Origin: Diacronema lutheri
Taxonomy: Eukaryota > Haptophyta > Pavlovophyceae > Pavlovales > Pavlovaceae
Direction: 5' to 3'
Assembly (NCBI GenBank): GCA_019448385.1
Contig: JAGTXO010000017.1
Span: 496,001 to 560,000, forward strand
Length of the DNA stretch: 64,000 bases
Below the pieces are notes generated by a model. The model worked only from the letters and a program-made list of their open reading frames with translations. It made no database searches and was not told the DNA's origin. How positions within the stretch are numbered: the stretch's first letter is position 1; each line of letters starts with the position of its first letter. Shown here piece after piece: positions 13,700 to 39,313 of the stretch. Both the position numbers and the translations under genes were made by a program.

Positions 13700-13738
13700 G
13701 GCACGTTGGCTCACTTGGGCTCGGTGCGCGGCTCTGCC

Positions 13739-13771
<33 letters not shown>

Positions 13772-15019: not shown

Positions 15020-15341
15020 GGCGCCGCTTTCTAAAAGGGTGTAGGGTGTAGGGTGTAGGATGCAAAACAAGCCCTCCCCACATTTGGGCCCGACGTCATT
15101 CCTTCTTCGAAGCCGTGACGTTACTCACATACGAGTACCTTTACTTAGTGTAGGATGTATCTATTCTCTAGCTATTTGCATAGTGTAGGGTGTAGGATAA
15201 GTACGGTTATGAAAGTCCCATAGGGGGGAGAAGGAATGACGCTGTGACGAAAGAAGGAATGACGTCGGGCCCAAATGTGGGGAGGGCTTGTTTTGCATCC
15301 TACACCCTACACCCTACACCCTTTTAGAAAGCGGCGGCGCC
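15020..15341. mobile_element. MITE-like element, copy 1
   Basis: A 322-bp non-coding element with inverted ends GGCGCCG followed by CTTTCTAAAAGGG, three GGGTGTA units and GGATGCAAAACAAGCC. The inverted arms are about 90 bp and enclose an AT-richer core with another GGGTGTAGG near 15186. It is much less GC-rich than its surroundings. No target-site duplication could be assigned. Confidence 0.7.
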
Positions 15342-15568
15342 TCGGAGCATGGCGGCTCGACAGCATGGCGCCTCGACAGCATGGCGTCGTCCAGCGTGGC
15401 GTCCAGGATGGCGACTGCGCCCGGGCCGTGACGCCGCGACGTCGTTCGGCTGCGTCACGGAGGAGCGCCATCCGTGCGCCACGGAGGAGCGGCAGGACCA
15501 CGACGCGGCGTGACGCTGGACGACGCCATGCTGTATAGGCGCCATGCTGTCGAGCCGCCATGCTCTGA
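15342..15568. repeat. Foldback spacer between the MITE-like copies
   Basis: The two halves are themselves inverted: GAGCATGGCGGCTCGACAGC and CAGCGTGGCG near 15343-15400 reappear as reverse complements near 15505-15565. With the flanking elements this makes 15020-15892 one long imperfect palindrome. Confidence 0.6.
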
Positions 15569-15892
15569 GGCGCCGTCGCTTTTCAAAAGGGTGTAGGGTG
15601 TAGGGTGTAGGATGCAAAACAAGCCCTCCCCACATCTGGGCCCGACGTCATTCCTTCTTTCGTCACAGCGTCATTCCTTCACTCCCTGTAGGACTTTCGT
15701 AACCGTACTTATCCTACACCCTACACTATGCAAATACTTAGAGAATAGATACATCCTACACTAAGTAAAAGTACTCGTATGTGAGTAACGTCACGGCTTC
15801 GAAGAAGGAATGACGTCGGGCCCAAATGTGGGGAGGGCTTGTTTTGCATCCTACACCCTACACCCTACACCCTTTTAGAAAGCGGCGGCGCC
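15569..15892. mobile_element. MITE-like element, copy 2 (inverted)
   Basis: A 324-bp copy of the 15020-15341 element in opposite orientation. It has the same ends (GGGTGTA x3, GGATGCAAAACAAGCC) and the same core, with small differences (for example TTTCAAAAGGG in place of TTTCTAAAAGGG at the left end). Confidence 0.7.
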
Positions 15893-15986
15893 TCAGAGCA
15901 TGGCGCCCGCCCGCTCGAGCCGGACCTCCGCGCAGCCGGACTCGCCCCGCCCCGGGCTGCTCTGGCTGGGCGACGTCGTGCGCGCC

Positions 15987-16305
15987 TCAGAACGCCGCGC
16001 TCGCCACGCGCACGTAGCCCTCGTCCGGGTCCGGCTCGGGCGCCGCGTCGCGCACCGAGCGCGACGCGGCCTCGACGCCCGGCGTTTCGGCACGCGAGGC
16101 GACGGATGCCTCGTCCGGCCGGCCCCACGGCAGCTGCAGCTCGAGCTGGCGCTGGATGATGCGCGGCGTCGCCACGCGCCCGTGCTGCACCTCGCGACGT
16201 CGCGCGCGCACGTAGAGCACGATCGCCACCGAGCCGCTGAGGCCCATCATCGCGCCGAGCAGCACCGAGATTGTGGTCTCATTGTCTGCTTGGGCGCGAA
16301 CGGAA
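15987..16305 (-). CDS. Possible membrane-protein 3' exon
   Basis: A minus-strand frame ends DEGYVRVASAAF and contains one clear hydrophobic segment, ISVLLGAMMGLSGSVAIVLY, followed by basic residues (VRARRRE), as expected for a single membrane span. Upstream exons cannot be identified, so this may be the last exon of a gene cut off by the neighbouring elements. Low confidence; it could be chance. Confidence 0.25.
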
Positions 16306-16461
16306 AACGCGCGAAGGGTGGCGACGAAGATCGTTGGGTTGGGTTGGGCCACCGGCTCCCGAGGATTGCTTGTGGCGCTCGACTGACCGTTGGCCCAGCT
16401 TTTTTTTTTCTCGAACCTACTGTGGAGCCGCCTGCAGCGTGATCTCCCGCGCAAAACGACC

Positions 16462-18860: not shown

Positions 18861-20615
18861 TCGCCGCGGCCGCCGTCGCCGCCGCGCGCGAATGCGCGGC
18901 GGCGGCGCGCGGTGGCGGCGAGCGCGGCGGGCGCGGCGCGGACGGCGCGCGCGGCGCCGGCGGCGGGCGGCGCGCTGGCGGCGGGCGCGCCGCCGGCGCG
19001 CGGTGCTGGCCAGCACCCGCCGGCGCGACGCCCGCCGCGCCGCTTGCGCCGACGCGCAGCCGGCGGATGCTCGCCAGCACCGCGCGCCGCGCGACCGGCC
19101 CGCGTACCTGCGCGCCCTTCGCGGGCGCGCAGGGCGGCGCCAATGCGGCCGGCGTGCAGGGGCCTCAAGCCGGCGCGCCGCCCGCCGCCGCGTGGGTCGC
19201 CGCCACGCGCGTGCCGTCGGCGCTGCCGCCGCCCGGCGTCGCGCTCGCGCCGCAGCCGCCGCCGCCGCCGTCGCCGCCGCCTGCCGCCTGCCGGCAAGCT
19301 GGGCAAGCGCGCAGCGGCGGCGACGGCGGTGCGCGATCCGGCGAGCAGGCGGCGCGCCGCCGAGCCGGGGGCGGGCTCCGTGGGCGACGAGGCTCGCCCG
19401 CCACTGGCACCACTCGCGCGCCGAGCGCGCACAACGCGCGGGAGTCCGCTGCGTGGCCGGACAAAGCTGCGGTCACGGCTGAGGGGCGGATCCGACACGC
19501 CGTGGCCGTACAGCACATCGAGCAGGGAGGCCGTCACATCGACATGAATTTAAGTGCCACATCGAGCACGTGATACCCTGCGGACTGGCGCCACTCCTGC
19601 CGCCCCTCGCGCCGAGCCCGCGGGGCGCGCCGGGCAGTTGTTGCGCGCGCACGCAGCACGCAGCGCGCAGACAAGACGTGAAAAATGTGTCGCGGCGAGG
19701 ACGAGGGCGAGCCCCGGCGGCTCGGCGAGGCGTCGCATCTCACACACACAGTGGCGCACTCCGAACGGCCCGGTCCACATTGCCCCCCCCCCCCCCCCCC
19801 CCCCCCCCCCGCGCGCGCGGCTAGCCGACGCGCCGGCCTCTTGCTCGCGGCTGTAGACCCGGGCGCTGAGGGCCTCGTACATGCCGGGTGGCCGAGGGAC
19901 AGAAGCCCGTCTCGGTCACGCTCGTGCAGCGCAAGCGCACTGCGCACGCGCGGCACGCGACCGCGCGCGAGACGGGCCACCGTGCAGCGCATCGGCCCCC
20001 GTCGGCGCCGGGTGCGCCGGGCGGCCGCGCCCTATGCGGCGCGCGGCGTGGAGCACCGAGGGCGCACGGTGCTGGAGGCCAACGAGCGGGTCAGCTTCAC
20101 GCGCGCGCACACGCATGTGCGCACGCAGACGCGGCACGTGCACAACCCGCCCGCGCGGCTGAGCGCGCGGGCGGCGCGGCGACCTCAACTGGCGCGCGTG
20201 CACGCTCGCGGCGGCGCGGTTCGAGCGCGTGCATGCGACCGGGCGCGGGTTCCGGCCCGAGCAGCTGCTCGTTGTGTGCGGCAGCTGGCTGCACCGGTCG
20301 CGCGGCGGCGGCCGTGTGCGAGGCAAGCCGCCCGCGCTCGGTGAGGGGCTTGCTTTGGGCGCTGCGCCGGCTCGACATCGCGACGACCCTCGTACCCAAG
20401 CTGCGGAGATCCAACGGATGCTCGCAGCTGCGCGAGGTGAAGCGGAAGTGCGCCCGCTCCGAGCGCGACGCCCGCCGCGGACGCCGACGGCGCGCCGCTG
20501 GCCCGGCCGCGGCTGGCGGGCCGCGGCCGGTGCGGCGCGGCACCGGCACGCTGCAGCCGTACGTACGCGCGCAGAGCGCCGGGCGGTCGCAGCGCGTGGC
20601 GGGTGGCGCGGCGCG
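18861..20615. other. Low-complexity region, no gene recognised
   Basis: GC-rich, alanine/arginine-encoding sequence downstream of the helicase pseudogene. It includes a long poly-C run near 19784-19811. I see no family motif and no splice-supported exon. Confidence 0.4.
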
Positions 20616-21090
20616 ATGCCCGCGGCGGCAAGCGTGACTCAGCGCGGCAACGTCGGGAGTGGTGCAGGCGGCGTTGAAGCGAACGAGAAGGTGGACGCGG
20701 CGGCGATGAGCGGCCACGGCCACACCGGCGCGTCACGGCCGCCGCCTCCGTCGCCTCGCGCGCGGAAGCGCGCGCGGCCGGCGCGACGGACGACGGCAGG
20801 GGCGTCGGCCGTGGCGGGCGTCGTGGGCGCGCCGCGCGCCAGCCACGCCGGCCTAGCCGGGCCGTCGTCGGCGTCGTCGTCGTCGGCGGCCTCGTCGTCG
20901 TCGGCCGGAACGGCGGCGCACTCGGCGCGAAGGAGGCCGACGGCAGCGCCGGCGACGCGCGCGTGTTGCCGCCTGCCGACAAGCTCGTCGCGCCGTGCGA
21001 GCGCGGTGTCGCCGTGTCGCCCTCGGCGGGCGACGTGGCGTGCGGCGCACGCGACGTCGACGCGGCCGCTGCCGCACGGCGGAGCAGGCG
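20616..21090 (+). pseudogene. Diverged copy of the giant Fanzor gene's 5' end
   Basis: The reading MPAAASVTQRGNVGSGAGG, followed by EANEKVDAAAMSGHGHTG and a basic/proline segment, parallels the N-terminus of the giant ORF downstream (MPMAASVTKGPGVGDGAGG, then EAIKVEETAKTSGDGCTG). The nucleotide match is also visible over roughly 130 bp, with many substitutions. It is not continued by a long frame, so it is probably a remnant of a tandem or inserted relative. Confidence 0.5.
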
Positions 21091-21104
21091 TGGCTGGTGC
21101 GGGG

Positions 21105-21132
21105 GCGGGGGGGGGGGGGGGGGGGGGGGGTT
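21105..21132 (+). repeat. Poly-G run
   Basis: A run of G residues broken once, upstream of the giant ORF. With the poly-C run near 19784-19811 it is one of several long homopolymers in the window. Confidence 0.8.
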
Positions 21133-21415
21133 GGTTGGGGGGTCGGTCGATAAGGTCGCTGGGGACAATCTCCCATCAGAAACTCCCGCTTAAACAGCCG
21201 CTAGGGCGGCCGCGTCCGGCACGCCCAGCGCCGCGACGAGCGCGATGCATTCCACGAGCGCAGTGGTACATCGCTCGCCGTGGGGCGCACCACGGGCCTT
21301 CTATAAATTTTTGAGGCCAAGAGCGACGTCCTATCACACTTTCAAAAGCAGCGGATCAAAAGGCGTCTGCCAATCCGCCCGCGAGGACGACCGACGCGGA
21401 CGACCAGCACGCGCG

Positions 21416-24400
21416 ATGGCGCAGGAGACGACCGGCTCGATGCCCATGGCGGCAAGCGTGACCAAGGGCCCCGGCGTCGGAGATGGCGCAGGTGGCGACG
21501 AAGCGATCAAGGTGGAGGAAACGGCGAAGACGAGCGGCGACGGCTGCACCGGCACGCCTCCTCTGCGCCCGGCCGCGCGCGCGGCCGGCGCGGCGGACGA
21601 CGAAGGGGCGGCGGTCGTGGCGGGCGTCGAGGGCGAGCGCGACGCACTCGCCAAGACGGGTGCCGGCGGCTGCGACGACGACGCTCGCGAGCCGCTGTCG
21701 GCCGGCAAGCCCGGCGCACTCGCCGCCGCGGCGACCGTCGGGGGTCTCGGCGAGCTCGTCGGCAGCCTATGCGCGTGGCTGGCGCACGGCGCGGCTGGTG
21801 GCGCCATCGCGGCCATCTCCCCCGGGACGGCCGCGCGCGGAGCAAACGGCACGCCGCAGCGCGCCGAGCCGCCGGCCGCCGGCGATCCCGTCGCTCCGCA
21901 CGCGTGCGTCGCCGCTGCGGCGCCCTTGGCGGGCAGCGCGGCGGCGCCGTCGTCGGCCGCGCGCGACGCGCAGCGCGGCGTCGCGGGATTCGACGCGGCC
22001 GCGCACGCGCACGCGCGCGACGGCAGGCGGGCGGCACGGCGGATGCGCAAGCAAGAGGGGGCGGTGCACAGGGCCTTCCGCAAGTCCCTCTGGCGCGACG
22101 CGACGTTTGTCGAGTTCGTTGAGAAGCTGCGCCCCGACGGCAGCGCGCAGCTGCTCGCGCGCGAGCCCACGCGGCACGCGGCGGCGGTGCTGTGCGAGCT
22201 CGCGCGCGGCCGCGACGGCGCGAGCGGCGCGGCCGGGCTGCTGCACGAGATGAGAGCCGCCGATGCGCGCGCGCGCGAGGCCGCCAAAGCGGCGGAGGCA
22301 GCGCGGCTTGCGCACGGGACGCTGCGCATCGTGGCAACCGTGGCGCTGGGCGGTGCGGTCTTCGCCGGCATGTCAGCGCTGGTCGTTGCTTGCGCGGCGC
22401 GCACGGCGACCGGTGCGCTTTTTGGGGCCCGCCGCCCGCGGGCGGCCGCGCGCGGAGCCGACGACGCGCTCGGCACGCTGCAGCGCGCCGAGCCGCCGCC
22501 CGCCGACAAGGGCAAGCGCAGGCGCGCCAGAGCCAACGACGACCCCGTCGACGCGGCGCGCAAGGCCGTGGGCAAGGCGGAGGGCAACTGCCGCAAGGCA
22601 GCCCGCCGGCTGCACCTCGCTGCACTGGGCGAGGAGGAGGCGCAGCAGCGCGTGCTCGACGCCGAGGCGGCGGAGCAGCTGGCGCGCTCGCGCGAGCCGG
22701 CCGGCGGCTGGGTAGGCAGCGCGCGCGCGCGCGCGCGCGCCCCGCCGCGCGCGCGCCCGTCGATTGGCGTGCGCGCAGCGCAGAACGGCGCGCCAGCTCC
22801 GTCACCTGCGCGCCGCCGCGCCCGTGCCCCTCGCGCGCAGGGGCGCCCTGCGGACTTGCGGCTGCAACAGGCGCACTTTGGCATTCGCGAAGATGCCGAC
22901 GCGGATGTGCGCCGCGCGCACGAGGCGCTGCGCCGGGCGAGACAGGGTGTGGCGTGCGCCAAGGCCAACGTGCGGCAGATGGAGGCGGCGTTGCTCAACG
23001 CGACGCGCTGCGCCACCGCGGTGCTCGCGCCGCGTGGCGTGCCGGAGGGTGACGAGCAGGCCGCGGCGAGAGAGCAGGCGGCGCTGGACCGGGAGGCGCC
23101 GCCGGCCGCGGAACGCGCGGCGCCGACGGCGCGCTCGCCCTCGGAGCTGCCGTCCGAGTGGGGCCCGCCAGCGGTCGGCCGGCGCCCGACGCCGCGTGCA
23201 CTGTCGCACGCCGCGGGGTGCGGGGACGACAACCCGTTTGCGCCGCTCGCAACCGTCAGCGGTGATTGGTCGCCCACGCCGAGCTTGCGCCCGCCGTCCT
23301 CGCCGCCGCGGCAGCCGCCGTCCGACCGCCGCAGCGCGCAGCGTCGCAGCGCGCGCGCGCGGCCGCCGAGGCCGACCGTTTCACCCGAGGAAGCGCTCGC
23401 AGCCGAGCGCCAGGCGCGCGCGCTGTCGGAGCAGGCGGAGCAGAGGCGCGCCAAAAAGGCCGCCGCCAAGGCCGCGCGCCGCGCCGCGCGCGCCGCCGAC
23501 AAGCGGACGGCGCGCGTCGTCCACGCGTGCGTAAGCGCCGCCTTGCAGCGCGTCTGCACGAGCGTCGCCACGGGCACGCCGCTCGCCGTGCTCCGCGAGC
23601 GCGCCGAGAGGCCGCGCGCGCCGAAGGCCGCGCCCGCGCCACCACGCCGCGCAGCGGACGGCGGCCGCGCGCTCCGCCACGCGCGCCGTGCGGCCGATGC
23701 GGCGGCGGAGCGCGAGGCGGCGGTGGCGGCCGACGCCGACGAGCGGTTCGAGCGGCAGCCCTCCGCCGCCCGGTTCGACGGCGGCGATGGCGGCGGAGGC
23801 GGCCACGTCGAGGCGAGCGCGCGACCGCGCGCCGGCGAGGCCGGCGAGGCTGGCGCGCACGGCGCGCCTGGCGCAGCGGGGCCCCCGGCGGCGTCGCTCG
23901 CGTCGCGCAGCCCGTGTGATGCGCGGCGCACGGCACGCCTCCCGCACGCACGCGCCGCAGCCACCTACGCAGGCAACGGCGGCTGGGGTGGCAACGTCGG
24001 CGGCGACGTGTGCGGCGATTGTTTCGGCGGCGGCGGCGTCCGTCGCGACGCCTGCGGCGGCGGCGACGCCACCTGCGGCTGCGGCGATGGCGGCGTCGGT
24101 GCTGGCGCTGGCGAGGCCCCTGCACACGGTGCGCCGGCGCGCGCGACGGCGTCGCGCTTGCTGCGCTTGCTCGGCGCGCCACGCGCCGTGCTCGGTGCGA
24201 TGGCGCACGCCGCGGCCGTGTTGGCGCGCGGCGTGGCCGCAGCCGTCGCTGGCGTGCGCGCCGCCGCGCGCGCCGTGCGGCGCGCGCGCCGCCGAGCGCC
24301 TTGCGCGCGCCGCACGGCTGCGCGGCGCGCTCGCAGCCCGCCGATGCGCGACGTCGACGGCGCCCTGCGGCCCTCACCGTCCTGGCCGCGCACACGCCTC

Positions 24401-27400
24401 GTCTGCGGCCGGCGCCTCGCGCCTCTGCGCCGCGCGGGCGCGCGCCCGCCGCCCGCACACGCCGCGCCGAGTTCCCGCGCGCGCGCTGCGCAACCCGACA
24501 GCGACGCGCCGGCGTGCGCGCCGCGGCGCTCGGCGCCTGTCGGTGCGCCGCCGCGCGCGCGTGGCCTGTGCGCGGCGCGCGCACGGCGCGTCCTCGACGT
24601 CGCCGGCCGCGCGGCGCGGAGCGCGCGCCTCGGCGCGCGCATCACGCGCCAGCGCACGCCGGGCCCGTCATCGGAGCCCTGCACGGCCGAGAGCGGCGAC
24701 GGCGCGGGCGCCGGCGGCATCGGCGCGGCGGCGCCTGGCGCGGCGACGATGCGCGCCACCGGCGCGCGCGCAGCGCGCGCTGCGGCGGCGGCGGTCGGTG
24801 GCGCCTCGCGTCTCGCGCGCCGCGCGATGGCAAGCGCCGCCGCCGCTGCCACCTCCATAGCCGGCGCTGCCGCCTCCACCGTCGCCGCCGCCGCCGTTGC
24901 CATCGGCGCGGCCGTCACGTCACCGGCGTTCGCCGCGGCGCGTGGCATGGCGGCCGCATGCGTCGCTGCCTGCGCCCGCCCCACCGCCGCGCAGGCGGCC
25001 GCGTCGCGCGCGCTCGGCGCGCTCTTCGTGCTCGTCGACGCGGCCGACGCGGCGGGCGACAGCGACGCCGCGCTCGGCGCGCTCGCGGCCGCGGTCGACG
25101 CGACGGAGCTGCGCCCGCCGCCGGCCTTTTGGCGCGCGGGCCGCGCCGCGGCGTACGCACCGCGTCCGCCGCCCCTCAACTCGGCGCGGCCGCGCTACAA
25201 CCGGCGCGCGCGCGCACCTAGCCCTCCCGTCGCGGCCGCGCGGCGCAATCTCGAGCGCGCGGTGCGCGAGCTCACGCGCGCCGCGCGCGCTGAGCGCGAG
25301 CGCGCGCCGGCGCCGCGCGGCGCGCGCGGCGGCGTGCTCCACGCGCTGCGCGCGTCGCTCCCCGTGCACGCGCGCGTTGCGCTCGGCACGGACGCGGAGC
25401 TGCGCGCGGACATTGCCGCGTTCGCGCGCGCGCGCCGCGAGCTGCACAGCCTCACCGACGCCGAGGTGGCGGCGCTCGCGCGCCCGGACGGGCCGCCGCT
25501 GCCCGTGCGGCTCGCGTGCACGGCGGTCGCGCGCGCGCGCGGCGTGACCGTGCTGCTCGACATCGTGCCGCGCGGCGGCGGCGCGCCCGAGCGGCTCGTG
25601 TGCCGCGCCCGTCGCCGCGGCGCCGCCACGCGCACGCCACGGCCGACAGCCGCCGTTATCGCGCGCGCGCCTTGCATAGCGGCGCGCGTTGGCCACACTG
25701 AGCCGGCGCGCGCGTGCGCGGGCGGACCGATCGGGGTCGTGCGCCTCCGTTCAGCGCGCCGCCCTTCTTGGCGTGGGGCGCGGCTCGACGTGCACACCCG
25801 CGAGCGGCTGGCCACACCGGTGCCATGCCACGTCGTGGCCTGCGCCGCCGCCTCGGCCATCGGCGCGTGCGTCGCTCGCGCGCGGCTTGGGCTTGCACGG
25901 CTGGCGCGCGCGTGGCCCTGCGCCTCCGCTCCACTAGCCACTGCTGCTGTCGCCTTCGCGCCTGCCGCCGACGGTGTTTTCCCCGCCGCACTAGCCGCTC
26001 CTGCATCCGCCTTCGCGCCTGCCGCCGATTTTCCCGCCCCACTAGTTGCTCCTGCATTCGCCTCCGCGCCTGCCACCACCGGCGTTTTCCCCGCGCCACT
26101 AGCCGCTCCCGCTGTCGCGTCCGCGCCTGCCGCCGCGGGCGTGTCTTCCGCCCCACTAGTCGCTGCCGCTGCCGCCCTCCAGGCCGCCTCCGACGGCGTT
26201 TTCCCCGCCCCACTAGTCGCTGCCGCTGCCGCCCTCCAGGCCGCCTCCGACGCCTTTTGCCCCGCTCCACTAGCCGCTGCCGCTGCCGCCCTCCAGGCCG
26301 CCTCCGACGGCGTTTTCCCCGCGCCACTAGCCGCTGCCGCTGCCGCCCTCCAGGCCGCCTCCGACAGCGTTTTCCCCGCCCCACTAGTTGCTCCTGCATT
26401 CGCCTCCGCGCCTGCCACCACCGGCGTTTTCCCCGCGCCACTAGCCGCTCCCGCTGTCGCGTCCGCGCCTGCCGCCGCGGGCGTGTCTTCCGCCCCACTA
26501 GTCGCTGCCGCTGCCGCCCTCCAGGCCGCCTCCGACGGCGTTTTCCCCGCCCCACTAGTCGCTGCCGCTGCCGCCCTCCAGGCCGCCTCCGACGCCTTTT
26601 GCCCCGCTCCACTAGCCGCTGCCGCTGCCGCCCTCCAGGCCGCCTCCGACGGCGTTTTCCCCGCGCCACTAGCCGCTGCCGCTGCCGCCCTCCAGGCCGC
26701 CTCCGACGGCGTTTTCCCCGCCCCACTAGTTGCTCCTGCATTCGCCTCCGCGCCTGCCACCACCGGCGTTTTCCCCGCGCCACTAGCCGCTCCCGCTGTC
26801 GCGTCCGCGCCTGCCGCCGCGGGCGTGTCTTCCGCCCCACCAGCCGCTCCTGCATCCGCCTTCGCGCCTGCCGCCGATTTTCCCGCCCCACTAGTTGCTC
26901 CTGCATTCGCCTCCGCGCCTGCCACCACCGGCGTTTTCCCCGCGCCACTAGCCGCTGCCGCTGCCGCCCTCCAGGCCGCCTCCGACGGCGTTTTCCCCGC
27001 CCCACTAGTCGCTGCCGCTGCCGCCCTCCAGGCCGCCTCCGACGGCGTTTTCCCCGCCCCACTAGTCGCTGCCGCTGCCGCCCTCCAGGCCGCCTCCGAC
27101 GCCTTTTGCCCCGCTCCACTATCCGCTGCCGCTGCCGCCCTCCAGGCCGCCTCCGACGGCGTTTTCCCCGCTCCACTAGCCGCTGCCGCTGCCGCGTCCG
27201 CGCCCGCCGCCGCGGGCGCGTCTTCCGCCCCACCAGCCATCGCCGCCGCGCCCGCCGCCAACGCGCGCACCGCCAACGTGCCCGTTGCCAACGAGGCTAC
27301 CGCCACCGAACCAGCCGCCCTTGAGCTTCCCCTCCAACCCGCCAACTCGGCGCTGCTTGCGTGGGCGGGCGACGCGGCTGCGCGCCGGCTGGCCGCCGCC

Positions 27401-28308
27401 GCCGCGAGCGCCGGCCTCCCGCAGGCAGAGGTGGAGCGCATCGCCAGCGGCGACATGCTCGCCTCAACCGTCGACGCGTGCTGCGAGGTCGTGCTGCGCG
27501 TGCACGGGCAGGCCGGCGGCGGGCATGTCTGCCACGTGCCGCTCGCCGCGCAACCCGCGGTGTTCCAGGACGGCGCCGAGCGCGCCGCGCTGCTGCACCG
27601 CCTGCGCAGCGAGGCGACAACGCAGGCTGTCATCGGCGTGTGGAGCCCGTCGGACGAGCGCGGCGGCGCGGGCGGTGACGACGGCGCGCAGCTCGCCTCC
27701 GGCCATTTCACCGCGTTGCGCCTTGTGCGCGTCGCGCGCGCGGGCGAGCATCGCTACGACGCGGTGCTCGTCGACACGCTCGCGTCGCCCTGCAGGCAGG
27801 CGCTCATGCTCGCCAAGGCGATAACTGCCACGCTGCACGCGGCGGGTCTCGACATTTCGCGCGTGCGCCGCGCGCTGCTGCTCAACGAGGCGGCGCAGCG
27901 TGGCGCGACGTGCGGCCTCGCGATAGTGGGCGCGCTCAACGACGCGCTCGCCGCGGCGGGCTGCTCGTCCGCGCCGCGCACGTTCAGCGTGGCGGACATG
28001 TACGCTGTCGGCGAGCGCCTCCGCGTCGCGCTGACCGGCGCGGCCAGCGATCGTGCGCCGGGCGGCGTCTGCGCGGTCACGAGCGCGGTGCGTGGCGGGG
28101 GCAGCCCCGATCGCGCCGAAACGCCGCCGCAGACGCGCGGCGCCAAGGCCGCCGCTGGCGTCACCGCCGCCGCCACCGCCGCCGCCACGCCGCCGCCGCC
28201 CGCGCTGGGCGCCGCCGCCGCCGCCACCGCCGCCGCCGCCGCTGCTGCCGCCGCCGTGGCCGCGCCGCCACCGCCGCCACCGCCGCCGCCGGCCGGCGAC
28301 GAGGGCGA

Positions 28309-28348
<40 letters not shown>

Positions 28349-31300
28349 GCCGCGCGCACGTTCTTGAAGCTCGCGCCCAGGGCGCGCGCGGCCGCCTCGG
28401 CGCGTGAGGCGTTGCGCGCCGCGTGTGCGCGCGCGGACGCGGCGGCGTCGTCACACGCGTCGGCGCCGCACGCGCCCGCCGGTGCGCGCCGCCGGCGGCG
28501 CGCGGGCGCAGGCGAGCTGGCGCTCGCGGCTGCGCGCGCGCTCGCCTCGACGGAGCACGGCGATTTGACGGACGACGCGCTCGAGGCCGCCGTCGAGCAG
28601 GAGCTGGGCGACGAGCGCGGCCAACTGCTGCTGTGCACGCGGGGCGCAGCGGCGCAAAGGCCCGCGCTTTGCCGGCTCCTGAAGCACGCGTGCGCGTCGG
28701 CGCGCGCGGCGAAGCGCGCGCAATTCACGGTGTTCGTCGTGCGCGCGGCCACGCGCGGCGAGCGGGGGGGCGCCGCCGCGAGGCGCGTGGACTCGGTGGT
28801 CGAGCTGTCGTGCGCGCTGCACGAGAAGGCGGGCGCGCTCGGCGGCCTCCAGCGCGTCTGTGTGCGTGGCTTCGCCCTCGAGCGCCGCCGGACACTCGAC
28901 GCTGGCGCCGAGGCCGGCGCGTCCGCCATCGGCCAGGACGAGCAGGTCGAGGCAGAGGCGGGCGAGGCGTGCGTCGCCGGCGTGACGATGGCCAAGCAGC
29001 TGCGTCAGTTTGCCGAGCAAGCTGCCCGCGACGACGTGCTCTTCCACGTCGCCGTGTCCGAGGCCGACGCCCACGCCCGGCTGGCGCGCGTTGCGGGTGA
29101 CGATGTCGGCGCGTACAGCGTCGTGCTCGCAGTCGCCGGGCTCGTCTGGCTGGCCAAGGCCGACGAGGTTGCGCCGGCGGCCGCCCAGCCCGCCGCCGCG
29201 CCGCCCGCCGCCTCGCCTGCTGCCGCCACGTCCGCCGACGCCGAGCGCGACGCCTCGCCTTCCGACCGCCTGCGCGCGCTGACGCTCGCCGTGCGAGTCG
29301 CGCTCGCGCGCGGCGTGCTGCGCCACCTCCTCGCCGACGCGTCGCCGGGCGCGTCCGCGACCGCTGGCGGTAGTTGCGCGACGCCCGTCGAGGCGGCCGC
29401 GTCCGCCGCCGCGCCGCCCGCCACGGGCGTCGTGACGAGTGGCGTTGCGGCGGGCGCTGTGGCGGCCGCACCGGCTGCTGCGGGCGGGGCGACGGCGGGT
29501 GCATCGCCCATCACGCGGCCGGCGAAGCGCGCGCGGCGCACGCTCACCGCCGCTCCAGCCGCCTCGGCCGTTGCGGCCGCTGGAGGCGCACGCGCTGGCG
29601 CACGCGGCGCGGCCGGCGCGCCTCGCGCGCGCGCCGCGCGCGCGCCGGCCGAGTACGTCTGGCTTGCCATCGCGCGCCGGATGCTGGCGGCGCGACACGC
29701 GGCGGCCGCGGGCGGCGACTTTGTCGCGTCGTGCGTCGCCGCGATGCAGGCCGAGTACGGCGACGGCTGTGCCGTCGTCGTCGGCGACGCGCCTGGTGAC
29801 GCCTTGGTCGAGGCTGCGGCGGCGGCGCTGCTCGAGGGCAAGCACGCGGCGGTGAGCCTCGGCTGCGTCGACCGGCCGGCGGTGCTCGTCGTGCAGCGCG
29901 CCGTGGACGCGCCCACGTCGCGCGTGCACGGGTGGTGCGCGCACGCGGCGGGCGCCGCCGAGTTTGACGAGGGCGCCGCGCACGGCGTGTTCAACGCGAT
30001 CGTCGAGCGCGCGTGGGCGCTGCGTCCGGACCCGGCCGACGGCAGCCCGCCGCCCACGCGCACGTGGGAGGTCGAGCGCATCGCTGACGAAGCGCCCGAC
30101 CAGGCGGGCGTGGCCGCGCTGCGCGTGCTCTACGCGCTCGTCGCGGCGCACGGCCGCTACCGCTCGGCCGCCGCGCTCTTTGGCGCGCTCGCGCAGCTGC
30201 ACGCGCCCGACGCCGCCGGCGCGCGCGCGGAGGTCGTCGCGGCGGCGTGCGCGGAGCCGCCCGGCGCGCGGCCGGGCGCCGCGCCGGCGGCCGCGCGGGA
30301 CGACGCGAGGGAGCGCGCATGGGAGGGCGCTCGGATCGCCGCGCTCGCCGTCGGCGCGGACGCTGCGCGCAGGCGTGTCGCGCCCGTGCGCGCGCTCGTC
30401 GACGCGCTCGGCACGCCACCGACCTCGGCGATCACGGGCGGGCCGGCGGTGCGGCTCGCGGGCGCGGGCGACGGCGGCCACGGTGCACGGTGGGTGGGCG
30501 GGCAGGCGGCGACGCCCGCCGAGCAGCTGCCGAGGGAGCTGCTGCGCGCCTACCACGAGGCGGTGCTGTGCGTCACGCCCGGCAGCCTCCAGCTCGACTC
30601 GGCGGCGCTCGACGCGGTCACGCGGCCGCGCGAAAACGACACGCTGGAAGGCCTCCTCGCGCGCGTCAGCTGGCAGTGCGGCGCGAGGGCGAGCACGTGC
30701 GCCATGCTCGCCACGTTTTCCGAGCAGGCGGGCACCGGCTCGCGCGTCGCGCTCAAGGCCCTCCGCACGAGCTCCGACCTGGCCGGGCTGACGGCGGCTG
30801 CGGTCGGGCAGCAGGCGCCGCAGACGCCGCCGCCGCCGCTGCTCGTGATGCTCGGCCGCTGCCCCAGCCCGCTCGTCGGCGGCGGCCTCTTCCCGCCCGA
30901 CCGCGCGACGGGCGAGCCGGCGGTGCACGCGGCGACGTCCGAGCTCGCCGTCGAGCTGCTGCGCGACGCGCGCGCGCTGGCCGGCACGGACGGGCGGCTC
31001 GTCGTGCTGTGCCTCGAGGCGTCCAACCCGCTCTGGTTCTGCCCCAAGGTGCGCGAGCTCGAGCTGCCGCGGACGCGGTCGGACGGCGTGCGCGCGTCCG
31101 GCTGCACCTGCCCTGCGACGTGCAGCGATGCGCGCGGCGCGGCGGGTGGCGCTGCCCGCGGCGCATCGACGCGGCCGGCGGCGCGCGCGATCAACAAGGC
31201 GGTGCTCGACCACTTCGTCGCGCTTTTCGGCCGCGAGGGCTTCGCGACCTTTGAGTTTGCGGGCGGCGGCGAGGCGAGCTGGCTGTGCGACAGCGCGGCC

Positions 31301-34300
31301 GGCAAGACGACCGTCGCGGCGTGCGCGTCGCTCCCGCCGCGCATGGGCGATGGGCAGCTGGCCATCCGGCGGCACACGCTCGGCACGGGCGCCGACGCGC
31401 CGGCGCACGCCGTCGTCTCGCTCCGCGTCGCGCACGTGAGCCACGCCATCCGCCGCGCGGCGGACGACGGCGGCGCGCGCGCCGAGCGGATGGCGCGCGC
31501 CGCGCGCGCGTTTTGCGATGTGGCGGCCGCGCTGCGCGTCGACGCGATCCTGGCGGAGGTGCCCGAGGACCGCCCGACGGGCACGCCCTTCCTTGGCGGG
31601 CTGCTCGAGTTTTGGAACAAACGCCACGGGAGCTCGACGGCGCCAGCCACGCTCGCGCTCGGAGACGTGCGCGAGGTGGCCAAGCGGACGGCCGACGCAG
31701 CGGCCGGCCGAGCGGACGAGGTCCCTGCGGCTGGCCGTCCGCAGGTCGCGGCGCGCGCGTGCGCTGGCGCGATTGGCGGCGGCGCGGGCGCGGCGGGCGC
31801 CTCGGACGCTGCGCCCCGTGCACTGGCGGGCACGTCGGGTGCGCGCACGGACGGCGGCCCTGCCGACGCACCGCGCCAGCTGGAGAGCCGCTACGGCGAG
31901 GCGAGCAAGCTCGACCTACCCCAAGATTCCACTACGGGCTGCGTCCTCGACGCTCGCGAGGCCCAGGACCGCGCGCGCGTGCCTGCTGCGCCCGACGGCA
32001 CAGCGCTGCGCCGCGTGCTCGACGCCGTCGGCGCGGGCGCGCCCGCGCAGCGCAGCCCGCGCTGGCACGACGAGCGATGGGAGGAGGTCACGGGCAGCAA
32101 GGTTGGCGACGTCGTGAACGACAACGCCGGCGTCGCGCACGAGACGCTCACCGACGAGTACGTGCACCGGCGGCGGCGCGAGGTGCGGACCAAGGCGACG
32201 ACCGCGGGCATCCTCGGCGAGGCCGTCGCGCTGCGCAAGCTGGCGGCCGCGTACGGCATCACCGTCGTGTGCAACCTGCCGATGGTGCGTGCGGACCCGC
32301 ACGACAAGAGCGCGCCGTTCGCCTTCTCGCCGGACGGGCTCGCCATCCTCCCCGAAGACAACGAGCAGGTCCTCGTCGAGGTGAAGACGCTCACCAAGGC
32401 GGACGCCAAGGCGCACGAGGACGGGCCGCCGCAGCCGCACCGCGATCAGCTGCAGCTCGGCATGCACGTCCTCGGCGTGCGCAAAGCGCTCTACGTGCAG
32501 TACCTCAGGCACGAGGACCGGATCGTCGTGCACGTCGTGACGCGCGGCGCCGGCTGGCTTGCATTCGCGCAGCCGAGGGTGCAGGCCTTCTGGGCGCGCG
32601 TCGTCGAGCGGCGCGCGCGGCTCGAGCGCGCGCGCGCCGACCACCCGGCTGCGAGCCGGCGGCACCGGCGGCAGCAGACGCCGGCCGGGCCGCCGCTCGT
32701 GCTCGCGCTGGACGGGCGCATCCCCGCCGCGCGCGCCGCCGCGCTGCACGCCGTCGCGCACGGCACCGCGAGCGCGGCGGCGGTGGCGGCGACGGCGGCG
32801 ACGGGCGACGCGACGGCGTTGCAAGACGCGATCGCGGCGCTGCGCGCGCCCGTCGGCAATGCGGCGATCGACAGCGCAGCGCGTGCGGAGCGCGCGGCCG
32901 TCGAGCGGGCGATCGCGTACCTCGGGCAGCCGGCAGGCGACGCCGCCGCCCGCGGCACGGCCGAGGCGGCCGAGGAGGAGAGGACGGTCGACGCCGACAT
33001 CTGCGCGTTGCTGCACCAGCTCGGCGCGAGCGTGGCGCACGTGCACGTCGAGGACGCGGATTGCGTCACGCGTGAGCACTGGGGCGGGGCGGTGCTCGCT
33101 GCAGCGGGCGACCCGTCGAGCGCCCCCGCCATTTCGAGCGTCATCGTCGCGCACATCGTGCGGCTCGCCGGCTTTGGCGTCGAGCTCCCGCAGTCGATTC
33201 GCGTCGCCCCCAGCACGGCTGACTGGCACGAGGGCTGGCTCGACGTGCAGTGCGTGCTGCTGCGCACGCGCCGGCGCGGGCGGCGCGACGACGACTTTGT
33301 GGCCGTCGTCAGGCGCGGTGGGCGCTGGTTTGCGTGCGAGCCCGGCCGCGCGCGGCGGCTGCAGTGGCGGTCGGTCCTGCGCCGCGCGCGCGGCGGCGTC
33401 GACGGGACCGGCGAGGAGGCGTTCGCGGTCGTCTACGTGCGGCGCGGCGACGCGGCCGGCGACGCGGCTGGCGACGCGCAGGCCGAACGGGCGCGCGGCG
33501 GGCGCGCGCGCAGGCGCACGCGCGGCGGCACGCGCAAGCGCAAGCGCGGCGCCTCCGCCGGGCTCGAGGCGGCCGCGCCCGCCGGCGCGCCGGCTGCCGC
33601 GCCCGCCGGCGCGCCGGCGGGCGCTGCTCACCGCCCGCCCGCCATGCGCGCGACGGTCGCCGCGCGCACCACGCGCTCTGTGACCGACGCGCGGCACTCG
33701 GCGCCTGCCGCCACGGTTGCACCTGTCTTCGACTGGCGCGCCGGCCGCCCGCCCCCCGCCGCTCGAGCCCGCCACCCGCGGCCGCGTGGGCGCGCGCCAC
33801 CGGGCAAGGCCTGGGACAGCGTCTCGGGTGCGTGGGCGGACAAGCCGACTGGTGCTGCCGTCGCCGGCGCGCCGCCGCCGCTGCCGCCCGCCGCCGCGCC
33901 GCCGCCCACCGCCGCGCCGCCGCCCGCCGCCGCGCCGCCGCCCGCCGTCGCGCCGCCGCCCGCCGCCGCGCCGCCGCCGCCGCCGCCACCGGCGGCGCTC
34001 GGCCGCCGGCAGCACGTCGGCGCGGGCGGCAGCGCGGCGGGCCGGCGGCTCGCGGCCATCGCACGGCGGCAGCGCGGCGTGCGCGCGCCGCCGCCCGCCG
34101 CGCGCTTCCTCGCCACGCTGCCGCCACCGCCACGCGACGGCCTCGCGCGCACGAGCAAGCAGGCGCGCGCGAGGCGCAACGCGGACGGACGGCCGGCGCA
34201 CGCGCGCGCGGCCAACGCGCGCGCCTTCTACCGCGGCGTGGAGCTCGGCGTGCACGCGACGCGCGCCATCGTCGACGCGCGCCACGCCGACCTGCCGCAG

Positions 34301-37300
34301 GCCGTCTTCGTGGCGGAGGCGCGGGCGATCGTCGCGCGCTCCGCCGGCGGCGGCGCGCTGCTCGCGCCGGACGACGTGCGCGACCTGTGCGACGCGCAGA
34401 CGGACGCCGATCGCGCTGCGATCTGGGCGTCGGTGGGCGCGCACGAGGCGACGCGCATCTTCGCGCTCGTCACGCGCAACGCGAGCTTGGCGGGCGCGGC
34501 GCTGCTCGTGCTGCACACGCCGGCGGGCGCGCCGGCGCGCGCGCTCGGGCTCGTGGCGACGCGCTCGCGCGCGCCGTCGACGGGCGCGCCGCGCGACGCG
34601 CACAGGGCGCTGGTGCAGCGGTTGGACGTGCTGATGGACGCGATCGTCGCGGCGCGAGGCGCGTCGCCGCTCGAGCTCGAGCTCGCGCTCGCGCCCGAGC
34701 CGCAGAGCGCGTGCAACGCGCGTGCGGCCGCGCTGCTCTGCCTGCAGGCCGTCGCGGACGCGAGCGGCCGTCCCGCCGCTGAGGACGCGCTGGCCGCGCT
34801 CGACGACGCGCGCGGCATCGACCGGCACTGCCACGCCGTCCGGCAGCAGATCGAGGCGAAGCTCGCGTGGCGGCGCGCCGACGGCGCCGTCGGCGTTGAC
34901 GGCGCCGACGGCGCGCCCGCGCTCGCGCCTGCCGCCGCACCGCCGGCGTGCGCGCCGGCGCACGCTGCCGGCGAGGCGGCGGTCGACCAGGCGATCGTCA
35001 CGCGGGTGCGCGACGCGCTGCGCGCGTGGGCGACGACTGGCACCGCGCCCAGCGCGGCGGTGCTCGACGACGCCTGCGCCGCGTACACGGCGCGCGCACG
35101 CGCGCGCAAGGACGCGCGCACGGCGCTGGGCCCGACGCGCGCGGCCGAGCTGCTCGCCGCGGCCGCGCGCGGCGGAGCCGACGGGGCGGATGCCGCGCGC
35201 GCGCTGCTCGGCGGCACGCCGCGCCTGCTCGTCGTGCTCCTCTGCGTGCCCGTCGCCGCGCCGTCCGGCGAGCCGCCGCGCCCGGTCGGGCTGCTCGTCG
35301 CCGACCGGCCGACGGACGACTCGCGCCCGGCCGCGCTCGTGCGCTACGACTTTGCGCCGCTCGACGCGGACGTGGCCGTCGCCGTCGGCGCGCATGCCGT
35401 CGCGCTGGCCAGTGCGATCTGGCCGCTGCTCGCGGCCGAGGGGGAGCCGCGGCCATCGCCCGTCGTGCGCTCGCAGCCGCGCGGCGGCGACGATGGCGCG
35501 CGTGCGCTCGCAACGTTCGCGTGCCTCGACGCGCTGATGACCGCCAGCGTCGGCGCGCACGGCCTCGCGGGCGGCGCGGGCATGCTGCCCGCGCTGGTCG
35601 CGCGAGGCGCCGCGGCCGCCCAGCGCGAGCGGCAGCTGCGCGCGGCCGCCGAGAGGCTGGGCGGCACGGTCGCTGGGTGGCCGGACACGGGCGCGAGCGC
35701 GGCGGGCGCGAGCGTCGACGAGGAGGCGCGCACGTACGAGGTCGAGGCGGTCGTCGACGAGCGCCGCAAGGCGGGCAAGAAGGTGACGTTCCAGTTCCGG
35801 ATCAGGTGGCGGGGCTACGACGAGAGCGCCGACACGTGGGAGCCCGAGGCCAACGTGAGCAGCGACCTCGTCGCCCAGTTCCGCAAGACGCGCGACGAGC
35901 AGAAGCGGCGCGCGGGCGTATCGGGCAGCGGCAGCGGCGGCGCGGGCGCGGCGTCGGCATTGGCGTCGGCGCCGCTTCGCGCGCACGGCGAGTCGGGCGC
36001 CGCGGGCAAGCGCGCCGCGGCGGGTGCCGCCGCGAGCGCGCGCGACGCCGCGGGCGCGCGCGCGCCGAGCGTTCCCCGCGCGCGCGGCGTCGAGCGCGCG
36101 CGCGTGGACGAGCCCGCTGCGCCGAGCGCGCGCGCCGCCGGCGGCGCGACGGCGCGCACGCGCGTCAGCGTGCTCCCGGGCTTCGTGGTCAAGCGCTCGA
36201 CGCTCAACGCGGGGCCGCAGGCGGTGACGGCGCAGCCCGGTGCGCGGAAGGAGCTGCGGCGCATCGCGGCGGCCGTGCACAGGCTCACGACACAGGCGTA
36301 CCGCGTCATCAACAAGGTGGTGCGCGACGAGGCTGCGGTGGCGAGCGCGCAGGCCGTCGGCGCGGCGTCGGGCGGCCCGTCGACCAGCGTGCACACGTCG
36401 ACCACGATGGACAAGGGAACCGTCCGTGCGATCTTCTCGGCCATCGGCTGGCACAAGGACGAGAGCACGTACGGTGCAGCGCCCCGAGGCAAGCCCGCCG
36501 AGCAAGCCGCCGCGCAGACCAAGGCGGCGACGGCGCGCGCCGTCGGCGAGATGGCCGAGGGCGTCCAGCCCGTCTGCGCGGTGGGCCTCACGGAGATCCT
36601 CGAGGCGGAGGCGACGCAGGTGTCCACCGCGTGCCTGATGCATCCATCGCGCGTCGTGAACGGGCTGCTCCGCGACGTCGTCCGCGCGGCAGTCGAGCGC
36701 GACGAGGCGCTCGTCGCGCTGCCCGAGATGCAGCGAAACGCGCGCGTGCGCGAGCTGTGCGAGCGGCTGCTGCGCGGCGACGTGGAGGGCGCGCGCGTCG
36801 GCTGCCCCGCCGCGCTCGACCGCCACCTGCCCGACATGGTCCTCCACAAGATCGACTACAAGTGCACGCCCACGAAAAGGTGGAACTACGACCGGCACAC
36901 GACGCGCTACTTCCTCGTGCAGATCCGCACCCTGCAGCACGTGGCCGAGGGGCAGGCGCTGCTCTGCCGGCTCGCGCACATCCACACGCAGCTGACCGGA
37001 CGGCCGCCGCGGTACAATGTGGCGCCGCTGCGCACGCACAATGTGCGCGCGAGGCGTGGCTGCCGCTGCCGCCGCCGAGCGCCCAAGCGCGCGCGCCGCC
37101 GCCGTGCGCGCCGCCCCGCGGCCAGGTTGGTCACGCGCCCGCGCGCTCGCGCGCCGCGCGCTGCGCGCAGGTGCCGCGCAACGTGCGCCTCGCCGCGAGC
37201 GCCATCTGGGTGACGCTTTCGGATGACGAGCGCAAGGAGCTGCGCGCGCGGCTCAAGGCGCTGGACCTGCGCGACCACGATGGCGAGCCGATCAAGTGGA

Positions 37301-38895
37301 CAGGCACAAACGGCAACACCCCGCCGATGTCGGACGTGCGCGTCAGGTACGCGGTCTTTGCGACGCGCTTCGACATCTCCAACCGCGTCTTCGACTACGC
37401 CGGGCGCGAGCGGCCGCCGGCCGATCTGCCGTGGCACGCGCGGCGCTCGTGGGTTGGCCTCGCGCCGCTGCCGCGCGTGCCGCTCCCGGGCCGGCAGCCC
37501 GTCAAGTCGGTGGTGACAGATGGCGTCGCCGTGCACGCCGTCGGGACCGTCCTCGTGCCGAAGGCGCAGGCGCCGGCCGGCGGCTCGGGCGTCCTGCACC
37601 GCTGGCGCCGGCCGGACGGGCGCATCGCCGTCGCGCTCGGCTCCGAGCTGCGGCGGGCGATCGACGTCGAGGCGGCGGTCGTCGTCGCGGCCGACCCGAA
37701 CATGGGCAACATCACCACCTACTCTGCGCACGTCGGGCGGGCGGCCGTCTGGCGGCAGTTCACGCAGCGCGCGCGCGCGCGCGCCGCGGGCTTTGCGCGC
37801 GAGACGGCCAAGACCAACGCGGCGCGGCGGCGCGTGCGCAAGGACGGGCGCGGCGAGGAGTTCAGCGTGGAGGCGGACGAGGCGCGGCTTGGCGAGGCGC
37901 ACAGCGCCAAGGTGCTCGGCGAGGGCGAGTTCCACGCCTTCCACCGCGAGAGCGCGCGGGTGCGCGAGCGCGCCGCCGAGCACGTGTACGACGCGCCGGC
38001 GCGCCGGAAGGAGCGCTGGCGGCGCGACAGCGGCGGGCGGTCCAACGCGGCGCGCGTCGCCGAGGCGCTCATCGCGGCGCACTGTGTCGACGGCGTGACG
38101 CGCGACCGGCTGCTCGTGTGCGTGGGCAAGTGGCTGCGCGACCACAAGGGCGCGCAGCCCAAGGGCGCGCCGCCCGCCTTCCAGGTGGGGCTGCTGCGCG
38201 AGCTGCGGCGGCGCGGCGTCGCGGCCGTCTTCGTGCCCGAGCCGTACACGTCGATGCACTGCTCGATGCCGCGGCTCGCCAAGGGCGGCAGGCTGCAGCG
38301 CTGCGGCGCGGAGCTCGCGCAGAACCCGCGCCTGCCCGTGGCAAAGGGCGGCACGCGCACGGTGCACGCGCTCGTCATCTGCCCGGCGTGCAACGGCGGC
38401 AAGAAGCCCGTGCACCGCGACTACAACGCCGCGCGCAACATCTTCTACGACGTGCACGACATGGCGGCGCACGCGGCCGGGCGCGACACCACGTCGACGC
38501 CTGAGCGCTTTGCCCTCGTGCTCGCCTGGTGGGCGCGCGGCGAGGTGTGGGAGCGTGAGGAGCGCATGGTGCACGGCGAGGGCGACGACTGCGACGACGA
38601 GTGCGACGGCGACGACGAGGGCGACGACGAGGGCGACGACGACGACGACGACGATGGCAGCGGCGACGGCGGCGGCGGCGAGGGCGACGGCGAGGGCGAC
38701 GGCGACGGAGGCGGCGGCGGCGACGACGACGATGACGGCGGGGGAGGCGGCGGCGGCGACGGCGGTGGCGACGACGGCGGCGGGCGCGGCGGCGGTGGCG
38801 GCGGCGGCTCTCGCGCCCGCACCCCCGCCCGCGGAGCTGCCAGCGCCAGTGCCGGCGGCGGCAGCGCGCGCGGGCCGAAGCGCGGCCGGCGTTGA
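21416..38895 (+). CDS. Giant multidomain protein ending in a Fanzor nuclease
   Basis: Exon 1 (21416-37042) and exon 2 (37171-38895) join through a GT-AG intron in phase 0, giving about 5,783 residues. The start is the ATG preceding the duplicated N-terminal motif; 21245 and 21440 are alternatives. Domains in order: low-complexity Ala/Arg region; a 19-residue tandem array (about 1516-1940); a C48/Ulp1-like cysteine peptidase (His2097, Asp2120, Gln2161, Cys2166); several papain-like remnants; a YqaJ-type exonuclease near 3545-3730 (RSPRWHDERW, Glu3602, SPDG with Asp3640, VEVKT with Glu3655/Lys3657); a proline-rich linker; a chromodomain (4774-4829, TYEVEAVV, RIRWRGYDE, DTWEPEANV); and Fanzor. 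Its RuvC parts are ADPNMGNITTYS (Asp5384), VPEPYTSMHCS (Glu5566) and HRDYNAARNIF (Asp5626), with zinc-ribbon cysteines including CPAC. An acidic/glycine tail ends it. In-frame introns or gene fusion by annotation cannot be excluded. Confidence 0.75.
25963..27235 (+). repeat. 57-bp tandem array inside the giant ORF
   Basis: About 22 units of 57 bp encode a 19-residue repeat of the form PLAAAAAALQAASDGVFPA, with variant units such as PLVAPAFASAPATTGVFPA and PLAAPAVASAPAAAGVSSA. The variants occur in the same order in successive blocks, so there is a higher-order repeat. All units keep the reading frame. Confidence 0.9.
37043..37170 (+). other. Intron within the Fanzor domain
   Basis: Donor after AAT at 37042 (AAT|GTGCGC), acceptor GCGCAG at 37165-37170. 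Splicing restores THNVPRNVRLAASAIWVTL in frame, whereas reading through gives an arginine-rich run with no Fanzor homology. Confidence 0.75.
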
Positions 38896-39313
38896 CGCAC
38901 GGCCGAGCCGCGCAGCGGTCGACGCTTTGCGGGCTCTGCCCAGGTCGCGCGCGGCTGGCGACGCGTGCCGCGCGCGGCACGACCGTGCACGCCGCCACCC
39001 GTGGCCGAGCGCGCCGCACCAGCCGGCCCGCTCCAACCGCCGTGCGGATCACGGACGCTCGCTACGGCTCGTCGGCGCGCGTCACCTGCGCCGGCGGCCA
39101 CGGCGCCGTCTGCTCCGGCCTCGTCGCGAGCAGCCCGACCGCTGCTCGCCGCCCGCACGCCGCCGCAGCAACGCTGCGCGTCGTGCTCCCCCGCTCGCCA
39201 AACGCGAAGAGCTCCCTCTCAAGGACGTCCTTCCGAACGGCCCGCGCTGCACTCGGGGCGCGATCGTGCCCCTGATCGGATTTGGCTTGACCATCTATAC
39301 TAATATAATATAA
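38896..39313 (+). other. 3' flank of the Fanzor gene, candidate guide-RNA region
   Basis: No ORF is recognised. In TnpB/Fanzor systems the guide (omega) RNA usually spans the 3' end of the nuclease gene and stops at the element's right end, so this stretch is the natural candidate. An AT-rich CTATACTAATATAATATAAG at 39294-39313 interrupts the GC-rich sequence and could mark the element end or a target site. This is inference from family behaviour. Confidence 0.3.

What the first reader, a model, noticed from the sequence alone, without database searches (positions are those of the whole stretch)
21416..38895. A Fanzor nuclease at the end of a ~5,780-residue multidomain protein
The C-terminus carries all three RuvC acidic residues (Asp in ADPNMGNITTYS, Glu in VPEPYTSMHCS, Asp in HRDYNAARNIF) and zinc-ribbon cysteines typical of Fanzor/TnpB. 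The same frame, open for 16 kb upstream, contains a cysteine-protease-like domain, a YqaJ-type exonuclease and a chromodomain. Known Fanzors are far shorter. A nuclease, exonuclease, chromatin reader and protease in one polyprotein-like product would be a new kind of RNA-guided element, perhaps processed by its own protease.
Basis: partly seen in the sequence, partly recalled or inferred. Interest (0 to 1): 0.93.

Follow-up and report, generated by a model that had tools for sequence, protein, structure and literature searches.

The report
Giant algal transposon protein with Fanzor
A marine alga appears to carry many near-identical copies of a very large mobile DNA element whose main gene seems to encode one enormous protein ending in a Fanzor, the eukaryotic relative of CRISPR nucleases, together with a DNA-chewing exonuclease and a chromatin-binding domain.

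Summary
A 5,339-codon stop-free frame (21194-37213) holds a RecE/YqaJ-type exonuclease, a chromodomain and the N-terminal half of a Fanzor. The RuvC/zinc-ribbon half lies in another frame (37171-38895), joined by a predicted 128-bp GT-AG intron; two copies with a 2-bp length change have it inside that intron. The protease is a motif only; no profile finds it.

The genome, by assembly statistics Diacronema (Pavlova) lutheri, holds 235 left ends. The giant frame has at least 4,000 codons in 92 of 116 scored copies. The commonest size is 31 kb; the one such copy read in full predicts 6,214 residues with two introns. A PIF1 helicase gene lies upstream. No transposase was recognised.

Published Fanzors have about 500-800 residues; my searches listed no report of one in such a protein. 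Transcription, single-product translation, processing, guide RNA and transposition are untested. Verdict: a new variant of a known kind (transposon-borne Fanzor), unusually interesting.

The parts
13021..39300 (+). The whole mobile element: begins TATATAGGGCGCGG, ends CATCTATAC
   Evidence: Same end bases with different flanks in other copies; no inverted match of 11 nt or more between the first 150 and last 200 nt
13067..13084 (.). Perfect 18-bp palindrome near the 5' end (GTACGACCCGGGTCGTAC)
   Evidence: read by eye in the sequence
15019..15890 (.). About 870-bp foldback (nested inverted and direct repeats)
   Evidence: also in 10 of 11 other copies whose left part was read; L056 starts inside it
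16462..18488 (+). PIF1-type helicase gene in two frames, so at least one intron near 17.6 kb
   Evidence: PF05970 3.7e-14 and 1e-24, Pif1_2B 3e-12, codon-phase switch
21245..22711 (+). Predicted first exon of the giant gene in this copy (alternative ATG at 21416)
   Evidence: open frame, codon signature
22712..22783 (+). Possible 72-nt in-frame intron with a length-variable (GC)n tract
   Evidence: weaker than the 37-kb intron
22784..37042 (+). Predicted main exon of the giant gene
   Evidence: no stop, codon signature, open in other copies
25926..27195 (+). 57-nt tandem repeats, about 22 copies, coding 19-residue repeats
27698..27919 (+). C48-like protease motif (His..Asp..Gln-x4-Cys); unproven
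   Evidence: motif by eye; no profile or useful PDB hit
32039..32614 (+). RecE/YqaJ/lambda-exonuclease-type domain
   Evidence: PHROG 434 9e-17, TIGR03033 2.9e-6
35735..35887 (+). Chromodomain
   Evidence: PF00385 1.7e-12
36164..37042 (+). N-terminal half of the Fanzor
   Evidence: alignment with a second Fanzor family; weak
37043..37170 (+). Predicted phase-0 GT-AG intron, 128 bp
   Evidence: a 2-bp length variant lies inside it
37171..38895 (+). Fanzor RuvC/zinc-ribbon exon; catalytic D 37693, E 38239, D 38419; acidic/Gly-rich tail
   Evidence: PF07282 1.7e-6
38896..39300 (+). 3' non-coding end, where a guide RNA would be expected; not shown
   Evidence: folding z-score -1.30, 11 of 100 shuffles as good; no Rfam match
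39255..39272 (.). Near-perfect 18-bp palindrome close to the 3' end
   Evidence: read by eye in the sequence

Best explanation
The locus is a 26.3-kb copy of an abundant, recently multiplied giant mobile element of a haptophyte alga (by assembly statistics Diacronema lutheri). Its main gene is read as one unit of about 5.8 thousand codons (6.2 thousand in the longer form) with one or two introns, and its product ends in a Fanzor preceded by a chromodomain and a RecE-type exonuclease. Shown: element ends, copy number, open frame, exonuclease, chromodomain, Fanzor catalytic motif, a length variant inside the predicted intron, the helicase gene. Inferred: one transcript and one protein; helicase and exonuclease resect DNA ends; the Fanzor, guided by an RNA transcribed off the 3' end into the flank, cuts the empty site or an uninserted homologue so that repair restores or copies the element; the chromodomain brings the complex to chromatin. 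The enzyme that inserts the element is not identified.
For: Open frame 5,339 codons against at most 1,459 in 100 resamples. Codon-position signature runs to 37.0 kb and then takes up the Fanzor exon frame. Domain hits. Fanzor homology across the predicted splice with a second Fanzor family. A 2-bp (GC)n change inside the predicted intron in both +2 copies read. Open frame at least 4,000 codons in 92 of 116 scored copies. Exonuclease and Fanzor exon 3-8 kb apart on one strand in 60 of 90 scored Fanzor exons, both lists capped, and in 62 of 72 exonuclease copies compared. 235 left ends; sharp ends. Same reading in a 31-kb copy, 6,214 aa.
Against: No transcript or protein evidence. Substitutions between copies show no clear codon-position bias, so selection on the protein is not demonstrated. 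No transposase found, so autonomy is unproven. The 3' end folds no better than shuffles would lead one to call structured (z -1.30). Large parts of the giant protein are low-complexity and match no family. The protease is not supported by profiles. Other Fanzor hits of this genome also sit in frames of up to 1,779 codons, so long frames as such are cheap here.
Confidence: 0.68

Rival explanations
1. Several genes in the same frame: an internal promoter near 36 kb gives an ordinary Fanzor of about 860 residues, and the upstream domains come from other transcripts.
For: The second Fanzor family shows that a Fanzor can follow long low-complexity open frame without these domains. A low-complexity stretch (35998-36164 repeats) separates chromodomain and Fanzor. 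Published Fanzors are stand-alone.
Against: No stop between the domains in this copy; open frame of at least 4,000 codons in 92 of 116 copies; Fanzor N-terminal half in the same frame as the chromodomain.
Confidence: 0.2
2. The long frame is a by-product of 75-80% GC and repeats, with only islands of real coding sequence.
For: Several frames of over 1,000 codons occur in the window on both strands; 57-nt repeats and (GCC)n tracts; no codon-position bias of substitutions.
Against: Resampling maximum 1,459 codons; codon-position GC signature over 16 kb; 9 of 10 internal indels multiples of three, though many lie in repeats.
Confidence: 0.05
3. A non-autonomous element moved by a transposase encoded elsewhere; the giant gene is cargo or a fitness factor.
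For: No transposase by Pfam in the giant frame, the six frames of 13020-21400 or of the extra segment of the C36 copy; size classes of about 31.0, 26 and 21.5 kb among 29 copies measured.
Against: The commonest class is the largest, 15 of 29 at 30,988-31,073 bp, unlike typical deletion derivatives (inference); a diverged recombinase could hide in the unassigned parts.
Confidence: 0.3
4. A Helitron-like rolling-circle element.
For: PIF1 helicase; no TIRs and no shown TSD; subterminal palindromes at both ends; Fanzor1 is known in Helitrons (PMC3627910, passages).
Against: No Rep/HUH domain by Pfam; ends are not TC...CTRR; no terminal inverted match of 11 nt or more of the Helitron2 kind.
Confidence: 0.15
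5. An integrated DNA virus or virophage-like element.
For: The gene content (helicase, RecE-type exonuclease, protease-like motif) is superficially virus-like.
Against: No capsid, polymerase B or packaging ATPase by Pfam in the scanned frames; no relative in IMG/VR with four query segments.
Confidence: 0.06

Closest known systems
[quoted passage not shown] PMC10432273, PMC10711439, PMC11423790, passages)
   Same: RuvC Asp/Glu/Asp and zinc ribbon; carried at the end of a transposon
   Different: Published ones are about 500-800 residues and stand-alone; here the Fanzor is the C-terminus of a predicted 5.8-6.2 thousand-residue protein with exonuclease and chromodomain
Helitron2 elements with captured Fanzor1 in Chlamydomonas (PMC3627910, passages)
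   Same: No TIR of the cut-and-paste kind; helicase of the PIF1 family; Fanzor present
   Different: No Rep domain found; different ends; far larger
ISL2EU (PHIS superfamily) transposons, whose second protein has a YqaJ domain (recalled; PMC4482050 seen only as a search listing)
   Same: A YqaJ-type exonuclease in a eukaryotic DNA transposon
   Different: Those have TIRs and a DDE transposase (recalled); none found here
Starships, giant fungal transposons (recalled; papers seen only as listings)
   Same: Element size of tens of kilobases
   Different: No tyrosine-recombinase captain found here; copy number far higher

Membership tests
Fanzor (TnpB family) | RuvC D..E..D with zinc ribbon of the TnpB type | tested here: met
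   PF07282 1.7e-6 above cut-off; residues align with a second Fanzor family. NCBIfam TnpB 0.023, below its cut-off
Fanzor (TnpB family) | REC/WED N-terminal half | tested here: inconclusive
   Weak alignment with the second family; no PDB Fanzor hit
Fanzor (TnpB family) | Guide (omega) RNA from the element's right end; RNA-guided cleavage | tested here: inconclusive
   Only folding z -1.30 and Rfam, no match; cleavage not testable here
YqaJ/RecE exonuclease | Profile match over the nuclease core | tested here: met
   PHROG 434 9e-17, profile 52-240 of 372; Pfam just under and TIGR below their cut-offs
C48 (Ulp1) protease | Profile match or papain-like fold | tested here: not met
   No Pfam or useful PDB hit; structure prediction unavailable
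Cut-and-paste (DDE) transposon | TIRs, TSD and DDE domain | tested here: not met
   a 4-bp TATA duplication hidden in the constant ends is not excluded
Helitron | Rep/HUH plus helicase, TC...CTRR or Helitron2 ends | tested here: not met
   Helicase present, no Rep by Pfam, ends differ

The most novel reading that the evidence does not exclude
A new class of giant eukaryotic mobile element without a conventional transposase, in which one 6,000-residue polypeptide joins an RNA-guided nuclease, an end-resecting exonuclease and a chromatin reader, so that the element keeps and spreads itself by guided cutting and recombination, like a natural gene drive.
Probability: 0.2. Interest if true: 0.93.

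Novelty: new variant of a known kind. Interest (0 to 1): 0.77.

Why it matters
Fanzors are described as compact stand-alone nucleases, and what they do for their transposons is an open question. Here one appears to be linked in cis to an exonuclease and a chromatin-binding domain, in an element that has multiplied to many nearly identical copies. If the single product is real, the role of a Fanzor in transposition becomes testable in a culturable alga, and it is a natural design of a nuclease coupled to end resection.

Tried and rejected
The 80-bp perfect inverted pair (12937-13016, 40805-40884) was first taken for the element's TIRs. Other genome copies show it as a separate, widely scattered repeat, often the 3' tail of a neighbouring element, so it was dropped. 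Contig ends lying at element ends (for example C13, C26, C32) looked like telomeric targeting; assembly breaks at a 31-kb repeat are enough (inference). Codon-position substitution bias gave no clear signal. Viral relatives: four IMG/VR scans, none. Rfam at gathering thresholds: none. PDB by sequence: nothing useful for the protease-like parts, exonuclease or Fanzor. Transposase by Pfam: none. MAFFT and BLASTP did not align the two protease-like motifs. I did not search for an empty site.
Full report
SETTING. The window is G000:C46:496001-560000 of a 43,492,796-base assembly in 103 contigs. Contig C9 has 3,042,068 bp and C11 852,258 bp; the window is 64-82% GC per 2 kb. The published Diacronema (Pavlova) lutheri NIVA-4/92 assembly has 43,502,671 bp, 103 contigs, longest 3.042 Mb, 852.26 kb in its N50/L50 rows, 73.25% GC (PMC8379373, passages). 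A light-harvesting protein of the genome hits LHCI chains of PDB 9vfj and then fucoxanthin chlorophyll a/c proteins (organisms not shown). Host identity is thus inferred from assembly statistics. In that paper words beginning with 'transpos' occur 0 times in the main text.

THE FRAME. The plus-strand frame 21194-37213 has no stop in 5,339 codons. In 100 Markov-1 resamples of the same 16 kb the longest ORF of six frames averaged 787 and never exceeded 1,459 codons. GC by codon position keeps one phase from about 21.4 to 37.0 kb (weaker at 23-27 kb, in the 57-nt repeats and at 33.4-34.3 kb) and takes the phase of the Fanzor exon at 37.0-37.2 kb. The RuvC half is therefore not in the same frame, as the finding has it, but in 37171-38895.

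THE INTRON. A phase-0 GT-AG intron, 37043-37170, joins the two. The joined Fanzor aligns across the junction with a second Fanzor family of the genome, weakly in the N-terminal half. In 60 copies the spacing from exonuclease to Fanzor exon could be measured: against the window (5,117) it differs by a multiple of 3 in 41, by 2 modulo 3 in 18 (16 of these by +2 or +29 bp) and by 1 modulo 3 in one. In the two +29 copies then read (C71, C100) a 2-bp (GC)n expansion and one substitution lie inside the predicted intron.

A SECOND, LESS CERTAIN INTRON. At 22719 a (GC)n tract is 4 bp longer in 8 of 8 31-kb copies checked (C36 and seven others), equal in the window and one 26-kb copy, 2 bp shorter in another. 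With +4 an upstream TAG falls in frame, so C36 has only 4,495 codons in the giant frame. A GTAGGC...GCGCAG intron (72 nt here, 76 nt in C36) would absorb this. In C36, of three CAG acceptors 60-109 nt from the donor only the 76-nt one leaves the join free of stops. With both introns out, C36 reads 6,220 codons to a single terminal stop, 6,214 aa from the first ATG. Codon-phase GC in C36 supports coding from about 11.8 kb of that stretch and shifts phase at 15.4-15.6 kb. The window copy would be a form whose N-terminal part is replaced; its joined product is 5,816 aa from ATG 21245, or 5,840 with the 22.7-kb intron kept.

DOMAINS. RecE/YqaJ exonuclease, chromodomain, Fanzor TNB. The protease is only a motif; neither Pfam nor PDB sees it. 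By eye a similar HW..DS..Q-x4-C pattern stands near the start of the longer C36 protein; an alignment program and BLASTP did not match the two motifs.

THE ELEMENT. Copies end at the same bases: left TATATA[G/C]GGCGCGG (13021 here), right CATCTATAC (39300), with different flanks. Of 22 left/right pairs examined (20 fetched, the window and C36) one lacks intact ends and one runs off its contig; in the remaining 20, two share a word of 4 nt or more near the junctions against a shuffled mean of 0.43. No TSD is shown, but a TATA duplication hidden in the constant ends is not excluded. 235 left ends match with up to one mismatch. 90 Fanzor exons were scored of 419 candidates, 99-100% identical, 1 of 90 with a stop. 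148 TNB hits were listed, 113 of which I took for this family by their score. 116 exonuclease copies were scored of 243 candidates, none with a stop in the 351-aa query; the open frame has at least 4,000 codons in 92, at least 5,000 in 7, median 4,509, maximum 6,136. Among 29 copies with both a listed left end and a Fanzor exon (from 41 of 90 exons and 100 of 235 left ends; 12 of the 41 had no left end within 36 kb), 15 measure 30,988-31,073 bp, 7 measure 25.5-26.9 kb, 3 about 21.5 kb and 4 other sizes. The C36 copy (31.0 kb) has about 7.7 kb in place of window 19440-21433, with a UCH/USP-like ORF (3.9e-8). A PIF1 helicase lies upstream. No transposase was recognised.

PAIRING. 60 of the 90 scored Fanzor exons have a scored exonuclease 3-8 kb upstream on the same strand; both lists are capped, so the other 30 do not show absence. 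Of 72 of the 116 exonuclease copies compared with the 113 TNB places, 62 have one 5-8.5 kb downstream. Of the 10 without, three have a Fanzor exon (C70 twice, C82), three lie so near a contig start that it would fall off (C19, C27, C99), four are unresolved (C70, C74, C38, C69).

SELECTION. Substitutions between copies are spread nearly evenly over codon positions: 26/32/35, 4/7/7, 51/50/67 and 8/7/4 in four comparisons, none in 1.4 kb of Fanzor exon. This fits young copies and does not demonstrate constraint. 9 of 10 internal indels (three alignment-edge gaps left out) are multiples of 3, many in 3-nt repeats; the exception is the (GC)n at 22719.

MECHANISM (inference). An RNA-guided cut at the empty site followed by exonuclease resection and homologous repair would keep or copy the element; a chromodomain would tether the complex. 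The insertion chemistry is unknown; Helitron-like and site-specific-recombinase models are both open.

PRIOR ART. Fanzor1 mostly 600-700 aa (PMC11423790, passages), up to about 800 and Fanzor2 about 500 (PMC10711439, passages); [quoted passage not shown] Searches for Fanzor with algae, giant transposon, Pavlova, chromodomain or haptophyte and for YqaJ, or Ulp1 and PIF1, with transposons listed nothing that by title or abstract describes such a protein; in passages of PMC6338049 I saw no such case. The library holds open-access PMC papers only.

Noticed in passing
window 8528-13016: Reverse-transcriptase ORF (PF00078 2e-9) of a retrotransposon-like element whose 3' tail (AAGCGCCGTTAGTA) ends next to the 5' end of the Fanzor element; a 30-nt piece of that tail region occurs 44 times in the genome, also in reverse at 40805-40884.
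   Followed up: partly
window 15019-15890: A foldback of about 870 bp inside the element, with GTGTAGG repeats; possibly a nested MITE-like insertion. Parts of it occur next to a tail of the neighbouring repeat in L023.
   Followed up: partly
L106 with L009 and L108 (contig C1, about 150405-154961): A second Fanzor family in the same genome, in a 1,518-codon open frame; other TNB hits have frames up to 1,779 codons. Several Fanzor families coexist here.
   Followed up: partly
contigs C13, C26, C32 and others: Contig ends lie at or near the ends of this element, probably assembly breaks at a near-identical 31-kb repeat.
   Followed up: no
window 40981-57983: Ordinary-looking flanking genes: PUA/SAM methyltransferase (40981-43752, minus), SNF2 ATPase (47906-50506, plus), CBS-domain protein (55815-57983, minus).
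   Followed up: no
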